From Arabidopsis thaliana (lineage: Eukaryota; Streptophyta; Magnoliopsida; Brassicales; Brassicaceae): a stretch of DNA of 64,000 nt. Every line of letters begins with the position of its first letter. Within the stretch, counting starts at the first letter, position 1. The position numbers and the translations under genes are program-made. This document shows, piece after piece, positions 4,531 to 49,675 of this stretch. The notes beneath the pieces are model-generated. The model saw only the letters and a program-made list of their open reading frames with translations. It was not told the origin of the DNA and ran no database searches. The stretch covers positions 6,441,151 to 6,505,150 of the forward strand of contig NC_003071.7 in the NCBI RefSeq assembly GCF_000001735.4, in the 5' to 3' direction.

Positions 4531-5619
4531 GTGTAAACATCTGAAAAGACTAAAAATTAACTCTAGAAATAATTAAAAAAAAAAACTCTAAAAATAATAT
4601 ATATACCATGGTTAAAAACTGTAAAAACCATAATATATTACCTTTCTACCCTATTACCTTGATCATTCTACCAAATCCATATTCCTAGCAAATCACATCA
4701 AATCCCAACTACCATATAATTCTCTCTAAGTATTCACAACATTCCAAATTCCAAACCAAATTCCACAACTATATCCAATCAGCATTAATTGTTGGATCTT
4801 ATCAATAAAGCTAATATCCAAGAACCTTCTACATTCATTCTTGTAATGTACTTTAATACTTTAATACTCTTTTTTTCCCGAGACTTTTTTTTCAAATCAT
4901 TCTTTCTTTTAATCAAAGGATTACTTATATCATCAGAAAAGATCATCGACATCCTTCCAACCTCTGTGTGATCAATCCACTTTTACGTTTAGGGTAGACC
5001 ATAACTCTCACGTTGAGGGTAGACCATTACAAATAGTGTGTGTGTTGTATTTTTGTTGCTTTATTTCAATTTCTTACAGCCGGGCCAGATTTTTGATATA
5101 ATTTGGGAGTTAGTTCTTATATCTCGTGCTCAATAACTCTTTATCTCTGATAATGAACCGAAGCATCTACAGAAATATATAAGGGTTTTCTGCAAAATAA
5201 CCTTCCAAGTCGATCTCGTTGCAAGTTTACCCTCCAAGTCCGAATTATATAAGTCAATCCCACCATCTCTACAGTCACCCGCAATACAACCCTCCGGTAT
5301 ATCGATGACGTGGCACTCGATAACTCCGTTGAAAAACATAATGATTTTGTGCAAAAAAAACCTCAATATAATTTTTTTTTGCAAAATAAACCTTCATGTC
5401 AAATAAATACAAACCACAATCTGAAAAATCTCCTGCAACATAGCCCTTCCATGTATCGATGACGTGACAGTCGATAACTCATTTAGAGCATGTGCAATGG
5501 ATAGAGATTTTATGAGTCATTTATTTAAGGTGCAATGTGCAATGGGTAAACACTAAAACTTAAATAAATGATAACCGTAATTTTAAATAAAAAAACAAAA
5601 TTAAATTTTTGAATCAATA

Positions 5620-43851: not shown

Positions 43852-44448
43852 AAAAGCAGTCAAGCATAAACAAGTAAAGGGGTGGTCATGATCACTAAAA
43901 GTGTAAAAGTGTTGTTTTCATACAATAATTGTCGTGTATGTGTCAAACGTGCTAGACTATGGTGCTAGTACTGTTTAATAAATTGTTTCCGGTTTTTTTA
44001 CGTATCGTAGAGAGTTATCGATATCTAAATTATATCTCTCTTCTACTTGTTATTACCTAAGCGGTATTCAATTCATGTGTACGTGGAGAAGTATCTTTTT
44101 GGAGTAAGACTAGTAAATCCCTAGTTTAAAAGGGTCAGCAAAAAAGATACTCTTCTAAAAGATATTCCCAAAAGATACCTTTATTCCCTTTTTGTTTGAT
44201 TGTTTAGAAAAAAAAATTGTTTTTAAAAGATTGATTTTTTAAATTTTCCATGTAATATTTATTGGTTAGTATTGGTGAATTGTAATTTTTATGAAAAATA
44301 GTTAATTATCATTGGTTTAGAGTTATAAAAAATTGTAAAATATTAAAAATAATACATTTATAATCGACATTTAATATGTTTTCTTAATATGTGTTTTTTT
44401 TTTCTAAACAATTAAACAAAAAAGAAATACTCATTTGTGGAATATATG
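43852..44448. other. Spacer with dispersed repeat
   Basis: Contains the 3' flank of the thionin gene. 44200-44420 resembles 30140-30400, a diverged dispersed repeat. No gene is seen. Confidence 0.45.
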
Positions 44449-44570: not shown

Positions 44571-45070
44571 TCTTTTTGTTGAATGCTGATGAATGTTTTC
44601 TTGAAAGAAAATTACGAGAAGCATACAAAAAGTGTTCGATAAGGGGAAAGCGCTAGCAAATATAACTAAAAAGAAAATTACAAAGCCTCTCAAAATGTAA
44701 GATTGCTCTACGAATGAAATTTTTTTTGGAAAAATGAGTTCTTTGGTCAAACGTCATTAATAATACACAATGTTTTTTCTAACTTTGCATGACATTTAGC
44801 ATCATATAATTTCAACACCTGCCCTCGTCTCCCAATTACTTCTCAATTAATATATTTAATCAATTTTTATGAATCTAATATTTTGTCAATTACTTCTCAA
44901 TTAATATATTCAATCAATTTTCATGGATCAAATCTCTTCTGTAACGTTTTTGTATTAGTACTTGATTAGATACAACTTATATGATTTAAATCCAACTTAA
45001 ATGCTATTGCAATAAAGACTTTGCTCTAACATACGAGTTTATTGAGTGAAACAAACATCTTAAAAGAAAA
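44571..45070. other. Spacer with a ~52-bp direct duplication
   Basis: The phrase 'caattacttctcaattaata' followed by 'atcaattttcatgga'-like sequence occurs twice (from 44833 and from 44886). No gene is seen. Confidence 0.5.
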
Positions 45071-47940
45071 TAATTAGTCCCTCTTCATTTTAACCAAAAA
45101 GCCAAACCAGAAAAAAAACCTCTTTTCATCTCCCTCAAAACTTAAAATATAGTGAAGATGACTATTCAAGATACATCCTATATAAGGTATCGACAATGTT
45201 TTATTTTTATCATTGCATGAAGATTAGTTTGTTAGAATCTTAAACTCTGTTTGACCTCATGTGTATAGCGAAAATCAACGACATCGTTAATTGACTCATA
45301 CGATGCACAATGTTGTAAGTGTCTCAAAGTGAGATCTATAGAGTTACAAGAAGATTACAAAGAGATTCGAAATAAAAAAACCGAAAAAGTCTTTTGAATG
45401 CAAGAGATGTGTAGAACTTGGAGATATGGTTATAAACTTTTATTCTCCTACTATTCGTTGGTTCCAATGTACTGTCATTTTAGAGAATTTTTATTTTTTA
45501 TGGATCTAATTTAATTAACACAAATCTTTATTGAGAATTTGTTGGTATTCACGAAATCCAAAGGAGGTAATTACTCCCTCTTCACTTCAACCAAAAAGCC
45601 AAACCACAAAAAAAACTCTCTTCATCTCCCTCAAAATTTGAAATATGATGAAGACGACTACTCAAGCTACATCTCACAAGGTATCGACAATGTTTTATTT
45701 TTATCATTGCATGAAAATTCGTTTGTCAGAATCTTAATCTTTGTTTGATCTCATGTGTGTAGTGAAAACCAACGACATCATTAATTGACTCATACTCTGC
45801 ACAATATTGTAAGTGTCTCAAAGTGAGATCTCTAGAGTCAGAAGAAGATTACAAAGAGATTCGAAGTAAAACACCGAAAAAGTCTTTTAAATGCAAGAGA
45901 TGTGTAGAACTTGGAGATATGGTCATGAAGTTTTATTCTCCTACTGTTCGATGGTTCCAATGTACTATTATTTTAGAGAATTTTCATTTTTTATGGATCT
46001 AATTTGATTTACACAAATCATTATTGAGAATTTGTTGGTATTTACAAAATTCAAAGGAGATAATTACTCTCTCTTCACTTCAACCAAAAAGCCAAACCAC
46101 AAAAAAAACTTTCTTCATCTCCCTCAAAACTTGAAATACGGTGAAGACGACTACTCAAGCTACATCCCACAAGGTATCGAGAATGTTTTATTTTTATCAT
46201 TGCATTAAGATTCGTTTGTCAGAATCTTAATCTCTGTTTGATCTCATGAGTGTAGCGAAAACCAACGACATCGTTAATTGACTCATACGCTACAAAATGT
46301 TGTAAGTGTCTCAAAGTGAGATCTATAGAGTCACAAGAAGATTACGAAGAGATTCGAAGTAAAACACCAAAAAAGTCTGTTGAATGCAAGGGATGTGAAG
46401 AACTTGGAGATATGGATATGAACTTTCATTCCCTACTGTGCATTGGTTTCAATATACTATTATTTTAGAGGATTTTCATTTTGTATGGATCTAATTTAAT
46501 TTACACAAATCATTATTGAGAAGTTGTTGGTGTTCACGAAATCCAAAAGAGATAATTAGTCCCTCTTCACTTCAACCAAAAAGTCAAACCACAAAAAAAA
46601 CTCTCTTCATCTCCCTCAAAACTTGAAATATGGTGAAGACGACTACTCAAGCTACATCCCACAAGGTATTGACAATGTTTTATTTTCATCATTGAATGAA
46701 GATTCGTTTGTCATAATCTTAATCTCTGTTTGATCTCATGTGTATAGTGAAAACCAACGACATCATTAATTGACTCATACGCTGCACAATGTTGTAAGTG
46801 TCTCAAAGTGAGATGTATAGAGTCACAAGAAGATTACAAAGAGATTCGAAGTAAAACACCAAAGAAGTCTTTCGAATGCAAGAGATGTGAAGAACTTGGA
46901 TATATGGTTATGAACTTTGATTCCCTACTGTGTATTGGTTCCAATGTATTATTATTTTAGAGAATTTTCATTTTATGGATCTTATTTGATTTACACAAAT
47001 CATTATTTAGAATTTGTTGGTGTTCACGAAATCCAAAGAAAATAATGATTCCCTCTTCACTTCAACCAAAAAGCCAAAACAAAAAAAAAACTCTCTTCAT
47101 CTTCCTCAAAACTTAAAATATGGTGAAGACGACTACTTAAGCTACATCCCACAAGGTATCGAGAATGTTTTATTTTTATCATTGCATTAAGATTCGTTTG
47201 TCAGAATCTTAATCTCTGTTTGATCTCATGTGTGTAGCGAAAACCAACGACATCGTTAATTGACTCATACGCTGCACAATGTTGTAAGTGTCTCAAAGTG
47301 AGATTTATAGAGTCACAAGAAGATTACGAAGAGATTCGAAGTAAAACACCAAAAAAGTCTGTTAAATGTAAGAGATGTAAAGAACATTGAGATATGGGTA
47401 TGAACTTTGATTCCCTACTGTCCGTTGGTTTCAATGTACTATTATTTTAGAGAATTTTTATTTTTTATGTATCTAATTTGATTTACACAAATCATTATTG
47501 AGAATTTGTTGGGGTTCACGAAATCCAAAGGAGATAATTACTCTCTCTTCACTTCAACCAAAAAGCCAAAACCACAAAAAAAAAACACTTTTCATCTCCC
47601 TCAAAACTTGAAATATGGTGAAGACGACTACTCAAGCTACATCCCACAAGGTATCGACAATGTTTTATTTTTATATTTGCATTAAGATTCGTTTGTCAAA
47701 ATCTTAATCTATGTTTGATCTCATGTGTGTACAAAAACCAACGACATCGTTAATTGACTCATACGCTGCACAATGTTGTAAGTGTCTCAAAGTGAGATCT
47801 ATAGAATCACAGAAGATTACGAAGAGATCCGAAGTAAAACACGAGAAAAGTCTTTTGAATGCAAGAGGTGTGAAGAACTTGGAGATATGGTTATGAACTT
47901 TTTTTTCCTACTGTGTGTTGGTTCCAATGTACTATTATTT
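45071..47940 (+). repeat. Six ~490-bp tandem units with a CW zinc finger-like fragment
   Basis: Units start at about 45071, 45568, 46061, 46553, 47043 and 47534 (spacing 490-497 bp). Each has an exon-like start (MVKTTTQATSHK in the best copies) ending AAG|GTAT, an intron-like gap of about 100 bp ending TGTAG, then a frame reading SLIDSYAAQCCKCLKVRS, ESQEDYEEIRSKT and SFECKRCEEL. This resembles the CW-type zinc finger of plant MBD proteins (MBD1/2/4/12 group), with the conserved Trp after the second Cys pair replaced by Val and the C-terminal part missing. Start codons are lost in units 1 and 3, unit 5 has a stop in exon 1, and unit 6 has a lost acceptor and a frameshift. The array is most likely an amplified pseudogene. 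Confidence 0.75.
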
Positions 47941-48520
47941 CCTACGAGATTATCCTGATACTGATGTTAGCGGATAGAAGCTTATCGCGATACGGTTGTT
48001 ATCAGAAAGTGTTATTAGTTTTGATTCTTTTTGTAAAACACAAGGAGACAACCTGTAGCATCGTCAGTATTATTTTTCTTATCTGATAGAAGTTATATCG
48101 ACTAACATTATTACCATTTAAACTCGTAGGCTATTGTTTGAGGATTATTTTTAAAAGGCTACAAACAAATATGCTCGCGTTTAGCGGATAAGAGATTTTT
48201 GTGATTATGTTATTATTAGAATTTGTTACTAGCTTTGATTCTTGTTGTAAAAGGGACAACATGTGGCATTGTAATTATTATCTTAATTATCTGCTAGTAG
48301 TTATATCGACTAACATTGCTACCTTTTAAACTCGTAGTCTATTGATTGTGGACTTTCTTTATAAAGTTAACGGAAATATCATCGTTTTTAGCATATACGA
48401 GATTATCGCGATACTATTTGTTATCAGAATGTTGCTTATAGTCAATGAGTCCACATAATTTCTATTTAAACTTGTGGTTTATTGTTTGAGGATTATTTTT
48501 AAAGGCCATACATATCAATA
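47941..48520. repeat. Three diverged ~220-bp direct repeats
   Basis: Repeats start near 47942, 48180 and 48395. Shared words are 'acgagattatc', 'ttatatcgactaacatt', 'taaactcgtag' and 'ctattgtttgaggattattt'. The third copy is shorter. They directly follow the CW array and may be its original flank. Confidence 0.6.
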
Positions 48521-49675
48521 ATGATTACAATATGTTTATGTTTTTAATGTTGGTGGGAGATATCTTTCAGGATATTTTTAGCATCCAGCATTTATGCTAT
48601 AAACTTTGTTTTGGTTTTATAGGGGCTTTTTCGTGAGAAATTATATTGGGGAAGAGAGAAGATTAATTACTCAATTTTCATGCATAGATACTTAATATTC
48701 TGATCATCTAGGCATAAATATTAATATAGCCCATAAATAATTAAATCATTTTAGCTATATTAAATGTGTTTTAGAGAAGAAAAAAAAAAAAACCTCTCTC
48801 CTCCAACTTTCCTCTCTTCTCTTCTTTCAGAAAGGAAGGATATGGCGTAGTTTCTTTTGGTTCCGGTGTAATCTGGATCGTATATATTCTCGTTTTCGAG
48901 ATCAATAAATTCCGATTTACTGTCGGATCTTTATACCGGTTAAATCCGCTTTTTTCTCTCGCTTTTAGCGGGATTCGATCTCCCTCCATCCTCGCTTTTC
49001 ATCGATTCACCGGTTTCTCTTCAAAGATTTCTCTATTTTCTCCAATTGATCGAGGAGTAACATCTTCATCGCGTCTTTTGCTCTAAACGAGAGATCAACG
49101 TTGGATTCAGATCTACATCAAGATGGGTGTAGTCGGTGGTGGAGCTTCCCCGGAGTTGGTGTTTTACAGAAACTTTTTGAAGTTGTGATTGTCTCTCAAT
49201 CCGAGAGATTCGATGTCCTTTTGGGTTGGATTCGAGGTCGGCAGAAGACAAGCGGATACTCATCGCTGCATGACTCATTGGCGGCGGCTAATCGAAGTTT
49301 CAGCGATGTCCGGCGAGTTTGACGGCGATGCGACAATCCTCGCCACGTAGTTAGGCGAAGACACATCCTATACACGTGTCGTTACTTACTTAATCATAAT
49401 TTGTGTTTAATTATTATTTAATATGGGCCGTTTATTGTCGTTGTATCCACTGGGCTCAAACTTTCTGTACTTGCCTTTGGGCTTTGCTTAATGCAAGATT
49501 TGGTCGACAAAAAACAAAAATGTGTTTAGATATCTCAACTAGCTGTAAAATATCACCTCATTAGTCATTTACTAAACAAAAACTACACTAATAGTAAATT
49601 ACATCATATTTTTATGGACTTAATCGAAAAAATATTATGTTAATAATTTTTTAATTTACGGTAAAGATTAGAAAA
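48521..49675. other. Unassigned stretch with a GC-richer island
   Basis: 48780-49320 is GC-richer, starts with a pyrimidine-rich run and is open on both strands for about 70 codons (49066-49322). I recognise no protein. It could be the leader of a degraded retroelement or a lost gene. 49340-49675 is AT-rich with nothing visible. Confidence 0.4.

What the first reader, a model, noticed from the sequence alone, without database searches (positions are those of the whole stretch)
45071..47940. Six-copy tandem array of a CW zinc finger-like, MBD-related mini-gene
Each ~490-bp unit keeps a two-exon layout and a frame reading SLIDSYAAQCCKCLKVRS, close to the CW domain of plant MBD proteins. Exon 2 stays open for about 50 codons in five of six units, although start codons and splice sites are decaying. 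The array sits beside a thionin gene and may be a source of small RNAs or a rapidly evolving locus. The CW Trp is Val in all units, so the change predates amplification.
Basis: partly seen in the sequence, partly recalled or inferred. Interest (0 to 1): 0.75.

Follow-up and report, generated by a model that had tools for sequence, protein, structure and literature searches.

The report
Decaying tandem array of MBD3-like fragments
Six side-by-side copies of the front end of a plant methyl-DNA-binding gene (MBD3-like) are really there, but each has lost its original gene structure and they drift like unused DNA, so this is most likely an ordinary relic; whether it makes small RNAs is untested.

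Summary
The array is real: 45063-47940, 5.8 copies of a 493-bp unit, 90% matches. The CW/MBD reading is largely right. The nearest relatives are a CW+MBD gene on contig C4 (L029; very probably AtMBD3, a name partly recalled) and an inverted-repeat pseudogene at C2:8.963 Mb. Each unit is the 5' end of such a gene (leader, 12-codon exon 1, 82-bp intron, CW part of exon 2) plus about 90 bp that matched nothing else in one genome search; the MBD part is missing. KWR-to-KVR is also in MBD3 and the inverted repeat, so it predates the array. Upstream of unit 1, 73 bp of MBD3-type 5' flank survive. The original gene model is broken in 6 of 6 units; 4 of 6 have no simple start-plus-intron route into the CW frame, U5 and U6 keep short formal ones. 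Unit parts diverge alike (8-10%), and exon-2 changes fit neutrality (37 N, 11 S, 3 stop; expected 36.0, 10.4, 4.5). The inverted repeat shares 61 exact 21-mers with the array, 16 with MBD3; siRNAs are possible but untested. Verdict: amplified truncated pseudogene, low interest.

The parts
44950..45021 (+). remnant of the MBD3-type 5' flank upstream of unit 1
   Evidence: 84.9% identity over 73 columns to L029 upstream of MBD3, E 1.4e-17; next best place in the window E 0.022
45064..45557 (+). unit 1: ATG>ATA, 2-nt insertion in exon 1, exon-2 frameshift (one extra A); the most diverged unit
45558..46050 (+). unit 2: start and splice dinucleotides kept, TGA at the first codon of exon 2, first CW Cys lost
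46051..46542 (+). unit 3: start ATG>ACG, exon 2 open
46543..47032 (+). unit 4: start and splice dinucleotides kept, TGA at the first codon of exon 2
47033..47527 (+). unit 5: CAA>TAA in exon 1 and a stop in exon 2 after CKEH; a formal 51-codon model remains if a donor right after the ATG (47123) were used
47528..47940 (+). unit 6: AG acceptor lost, exon-2 frameshift, tail truncated; an unspliced frame 47711-47896 (61 codons) reads the first half of the CW part, then a shifted frame
46630..46665 (+). exon 1 of unit 4 (MVKTTTQATSHK), taken as example
46751..46957 (+). CW-like exon 2 frame of unit 4, taken as example
   Evidence: zf-CW E 0.0011, below cut-off; match to MBD3 E 1.7e-29 in a small target set
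46941..47032 (+). unit tail without homology to MBD3 (example unit 4; left edge approximate, by eye)
   Evidence: a 116-bp query, nearly all from unit 2, matched only the five array copies, itself included, in a search that skips very common words; 45% differences to the inverted-repeat locus against 10.5-19.4% elsewhere in the unit
47944..48735 (.). dispersed repeat that lies three bases beyond the array and may have truncated unit 6
   Evidence: 86% to C5:14869745-14870588, 85% to C3:17046687-17047390; 23 matches listed, the query itself included

Best explanation
A tandemly amplified, truncated pseudogene of an MBD3-like gene. A DNA-level copy (intron kept) of the gene's 5' end, from its upstream flank to the CW part of exon 2, lies next to unrelated DNA without the MBD part (shown). 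One 493-bp segment, from the 5' leader to the foreign tail, was then multiplied to about six copies, presumably by unequal crossing-over or replication slippage (inferred). The copies have since mutated in a way that fits no selection for protein, and a dispersed repeat now lies where unit 6 breaks off (adjacency shown, cause inferred). It most likely does nothing as protein. Any activity would be as transcribed repeat or small-RNA DNA under the leftover MBD3-type 5' flank, which is inference only.
For: Homology of all six units to L029 and L030. MBD3-type 5' flank kept upstream of unit 1. No MBD domain in the window (0 of the 11 MBD places listed genome-wide; such lists are lower bounds). Original gene model broken in 6 of 6 units; 0 simple models into the CW frame in U1-U4. 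Even divergence by part: leader 9.6, exon 1 9.3, intron 8.0, exon 2 8.9, tail 10.2%. Variable exon-2 columns by codon position 16/12/11 of 58 each. N/S/stop 37/11/3 against neutral 36.0/10.4/4.5. Pooled dN/dS 0.75, no error bar. The tree puts the units, MBD3 and both inverted-repeat arms in one unresolved group at 100/100 against L014 and L015.
Against: U5 and U6 keep formal short frames: 51 codons with a donor right after the ATG in U5, and 61 codons unspliced in U6. Pooled dN/dS is a little under 1. With the cut at >=49 codons, 5 or more of 6 open units has a neutral probability of 0.118, 0.045 or 0.022 for indel rates 0, 0.002 and 0.0042 per site; the last is close to the rate counted in the alignment (12 events in 2865 sites). 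At >=50 codons, 4 or more of 6 has about 0.20, 0.10 or 0.07 for rates 0.002, 0.004 and 0.006. That is borderline; the cuts were set after seeing the data, and U6 counts only through a frameshift. No expression, methylation or small-RNA data were available.
Confidence: 0.86

Rival explanations
1. A small-RNA locus (compatible with pseudogene origin, so the odds overlap): the tandem array, and above all the spacerless inverted repeat at C2:8963189-8963990, feed siRNAs that silence the array and touch MBD3 itself, a feedback on a methylation reader.
For: Inverted repeat with arms 85% alike that folds at -513.9 kcal/mol as one hairpin; exact 21-mers shared, both strands: array and inverted repeat 61, array and MBD3 57, inverted repeat and MBD3 16; longest exact runs 37, 36 and 34 nt. 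C>T changes in the units somewhat more frequent at CG+CHG (17 of 166) than at CHH (52 of 824), P 0.09. IR71 and IR2039 are known siRNA inverted repeats of A. thaliana (passage in PMC5910406).
Against: No small-RNA reads could be examined. The context test is not significant. Arms at 85% are old and imperfect. No Rfam family in window, L029 or L030 at gathering scores, though young siRNA loci would hardly be in Rfam. Published work finds MBD3 highly expressed in pollen and, like most MBD genes, in seeds (PMC10384339, section 2.1), so it is not simply silenced.
Confidence: 0.15
2. A working family of small CW-only proteins.
For: Exon 2 open in 4 of 6 units at >=50 codons; the majority unit reads MVKTTTQATSHK + RKPTTSLIDSYAAQCCKCLKVRS... 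in frame across a GT-AG intron; formal frames left in U5 and U6.
Confidence: 0.03
3. A satellite or transposon repeat unrelated to MBD genes, the CW likeness being chance.
For: Tandem layout; repeats on both flanks; Pfam zf-CW below cut-off and array absent from the genome-wide zf-CW list.
Against: DNA matches lie at three loci of the genome, the array and two MBD3-like genes or pseudogenes, with 5' flank, exon and intron in the same order.
Confidence: 0.01

Closest known systems
AtMBD3 (AT4G00416; L029, exon 2 at 5033-5511)
   Same: 5' flank, leader, intron, CW exon, KVR instead of KWR; over the exon-2 side 83-86% DNA identity in 5 of 6 units (229-230 columns) and 77.9% in U2 (a longer alignment of 290 columns)
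   Different: MBD3 keeps the MBD domain and an open frame; the array has no MBD part, is tandem, and its units are broken. MBD3 lacks 7 nt at the start of exon 2 that the array and the inverted repeat keep (by eye).
Inverted-repeat MBD3-like pseudogene at C2:8962869-8964009 (L030)
   Same: 82-87% DNA identity over about 400 bp, also decayed, KVR in its left arm
   Different: palindromic instead of tandem, keeps MBD remnants in both arms, lacks the MBD3-type distal 5' flank
CW-containing MBD genes L015 and L014 (MBD4 and MBD1 by recall)
   Same: CW exon alignable: unit 4 matches L015 at E 7e-13 and L014 at 2e-11 in a small target set
   Different: keep KWR and an MBD domain; outside the array-MBD3 group in the tree (100/100)
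siRNA inverted repeats IR71 and IR2039
   Same: inverted repeat, as the L030 relative
   Different: those have shown small RNAs (passage in PMC5910406); none shown here

Membership tests
CW-type zinc finger (PF07496) | profile score over the curated cut-off of 27.5 bits | tested here: not met
   3 of 5 unit frames submitted matched (14.6, 19.3, 15.0 bits), none over the cut-off; U6 not submitted; MBD3 itself only 15.6 bits; array and MBD3 not among the 10 places of the genome-wide search
CW-type zinc finger (PF07496) | four zinc-binding Cys (positions recalled) | tested here: inconclusive
   alignment of U2-U5 with MBD genes: all four kept in U3, U4, U5, first Cys lost in U2; U1 and U6 shift frame before the third; so 3 of 6 keep all four
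CW-type zinc finger (PF07496) | conserved Trp of the K-W-R motif | tested here: not met
   Val in 6 of 6 units, in MBD3 and in the inverted repeat's left arm
MBD gene family | methyl-CpG-binding domain (PF01429) | tested here: not met
   no MBD place in the window among 11 listed genome-wide
Descent from an MBD3-like gene | shared exon, intron and 5' flank DNA | tested here: met
Unprocessed (duplicated) pseudogene | intron retained, disabling lesions, neutral change | tested here: met
   formal short frames remain in U5 and U6
siRNA / RdDM locus | 21-24-nt small RNAs and CHH methylation | not testable with these tools
   no read data

The most novel reading that the evidence does not exclude
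The three MBD3-like loci form a small silencing circuit: siRNAs from the palindromic pseudogene, reinforced by the tandem array under its leftover MBD3-type 5' flank, tune the pollen-expressed methylation reader MBD3.
Probability: 0.06. Interest if true: 0.6.

Novelty: new member of a known kind. Interest (0 to 1): 0.24.

Why it matters
It explains an odd repeat beside a thionin-like gene and gives MBD3 two decayed relatives, one tandem and one palindromic. They help to date MBD3's lost CW Trp and make it possible to ask whether pseudogene repeats of an epigenetic gene act back on it. As a gene in its own right the array is unlikely to matter.

Tried and rejected
Rejected: a chance CW likeness or a satellite; a selected coding array (with the borderline results given above); MBD remains downstream of the array (none found); an origin of the unit tail elsewhere in the genome (only array copies found); a known RNA family (none at gathering score). 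The bacterial promoter scan is not meant for plants and is not used.

Papers. AtMBD3 with two other terms: 6 papers; AT4G00416: 2; AT2G15010: 6 (locus number recalled); six guessed locus numbers between AT2G15005 and AT2G15018: 0. Topic searches were seen as listings only (the first 8 to 10 rows) and showed no title on this array. Read in part: PMC10384339 (passages; section 2.1), PMC11592758 (passages; its A. lyrata 'AlMBD3', 2184 residues, is clearly not this gene by size, so it was no help), PMC5910406 (passages). The library is limited to open papers, so absence from print is not shown.

Full report
Observation. The six units align over their whole length, U6 lacking about the last 80 bp. 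Pairwise differences are 7.1 to 11.7% (K2P 0.075 to 0.129), with U1 the most diverged.

Where it lies. The window is C2:6441151-6505150 of a 119.66-Mb genome in 7 contigs. Contig lengths of 19,696,942 and 18,585,056 and the gene positions fit Arabidopsis thaliana; this naming rests on recall, not on a call.

What it is. A whole-genome DNA search with the array finds matches at three loci: itself, C4:178718-179221 and C2:8962886-8963990. The C4 locus (L029) holds a frame of 160 residues with an MBD domain (E 1.8e-9) and a weak CW match. I take it as AtMBD3, AT4G00416: the pairing of locus number and name is in PMC10384339 (passages), but that this position is that locus is recalled. Over the exon-2 side the units match it at 83-86% in 5 of 6 cases and at 77.9% in U2, whose alignment is longer; over the leader and exon-1 side at 80-85%. 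In protein, 4 of 4 unit frames compared (U2-U5) match MBD3 at E 2.9e-21 to 7.4e-29 in a small target set. The genome-wide search with the MBD3 protein lists all six units.

Anatomy of a unit. Leader, exon 1 of 36 nt, intron of 82 bp with GT and AG, then the CW part of exon 2; the majority sequence reads MVKTTTQATSHK and RKPTTSLIDSYAAQCCKCLKVRSIESQEDYKEIRSKTPKKSFECKRCEELGDMVMNFY. Homology to MBD3 stops near its GTTGGTTTCAG (by eye), and about 90 bp of tail follow that matched only array copies in a genome search. The intron shows that the copy was made at DNA level. Upstream of unit 1, 44950-45021 is 84.9% identical to the flank of MBD3, E 1.4e-17; the inverted-repeat locus lacks this stretch but shares the next bases from about 45035. 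So unit 1 seems to keep the original 5' edge, and the other units were added by duplication of the segment from leader to tail; the mechanism is inferred.

CW features. Pfam zf-CW matches 3 of 5 unit frames submitted, best 19.3 bits and E 0.0011, all under the cut-off of 27.5; MBD3 scores only 15.6. The genome-wide zf-CW search lists 10 places, with neither the array nor MBD3 among them. The assignment therefore rests on homology to MBD3 and through it to the CW genes L014 and L015. The Trp of KWR is Val in 6 of 6 units, in MBD3 and in the left arm of the inverted repeat, while L011, L012, L014 and L015 keep Trp.

State of the units, judged against the array's own gene model. U1 has ATA for ATG and frameshifts; U2 and U4 have TGA as the first codon of exon 2; U3 has ACG for ATG; U5 has TAA in exon 1 and a stop in exon 2; U6 lost the AG acceptor and has a frameshift. 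I then asked for any ATG, unspliced or with one GT-AG intron of at least 60 bp inside the unit, that reaches the CW frame: none in U1, U2, U3 and U4; one in U5 (donor right after the ATG at 47120, 51 codons); two unspliced in U6 (starts 47711 and 47723, 61 and 57 codons, leaving the CW frame at the deletion). These formal frames count a little against my reading.

Selection. All parts of the unit differ by 8.0-10.2% between units. Exon-2 changes from the majority sequence are 37 nonsynonymous, 11 synonymous, 3 stop; a neutral simulation with the observed spectrum gives 36.0, 10.4 and 4.5. Pooled dN/dS is 0.75, without error bar. Open exon 2 frames: 4 of 6 at >=50 codons, with neutral probability of 4 or more about 0.20, 0.10 and 0.07 for indel rates 0.002, 0.004 and 0.006; 5 of 6 at >=49, with neutral probability 0.118, 0.045 and 0.022 for rates 0, 0.002 and 0.0042, the last being near the counted rate of 12 events in 2865 sites. 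That is borderline against my reading; the cuts were set after seeing the data, and one of the five, U6, is open only in a shifted frame.

Age. With a recalled rate near 7e-9 per site and year, the K2P values would put the unit duplications at some 5 to 9 million years, if there was no gene conversion. The tree of the CW part does not resolve the order of units, MBD3 and inverted-repeat arms (6 of 8 inner branches open).

Second relative. C2:8963189-8963990 is an inverted repeat without spacer, arms 85% alike, MFE -513.9 kcal/mol. Exact 21-mers shared: 61 with the array and 16 with MBD3; array and MBD3 share 57. This would let siRNAs from it reach both, but no read data were at hand. C>T changes at CG+CHG against CHH give P 0.09, a hint at most of past methylation.

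Verdict. A tandemly amplified, truncated, decayed MBD3-like pseudogene.

Noticed in passing
L030 5190-5991 (C2:8963189-8963990): Spacerless inverted repeat of an MBD3-like pseudogene, arms 85% alike, folding as one long hairpin; a candidate siRNA source.
   Followed up: partly
L029 4800-5050: The 5' end of MBD3 looks remodelled: a duplicated exon-1/intron stretch, 7 nt missing at the start of exon 2 compared with the array and the inverted repeat (by eye), and TGA if the array's exon 1 were used (by eye). A start at L029 4944 with a 79-bp intron gives 163 residues; that this equals the annotated length is recalled.
   Followed up: partly
window 44187-44426: MITE-like element of about 240 bp with terminal inverted repeats of roughly 31-35 bp; 39 other places at 80-93% among the 40 of 137 candidates scored.
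   Followed up: no
window 47944-48735: Dispersed repeat with internal repeats and copies on several contigs, starting three bases beyond the array.
   Followed up: partly
   Followed up: no
G000:C2:10247407-10247631: Weak match to the MBD3 protein (E 5.9e-4, 35%) with three stops inside, perhaps another MBD relic.
   Followed up: no
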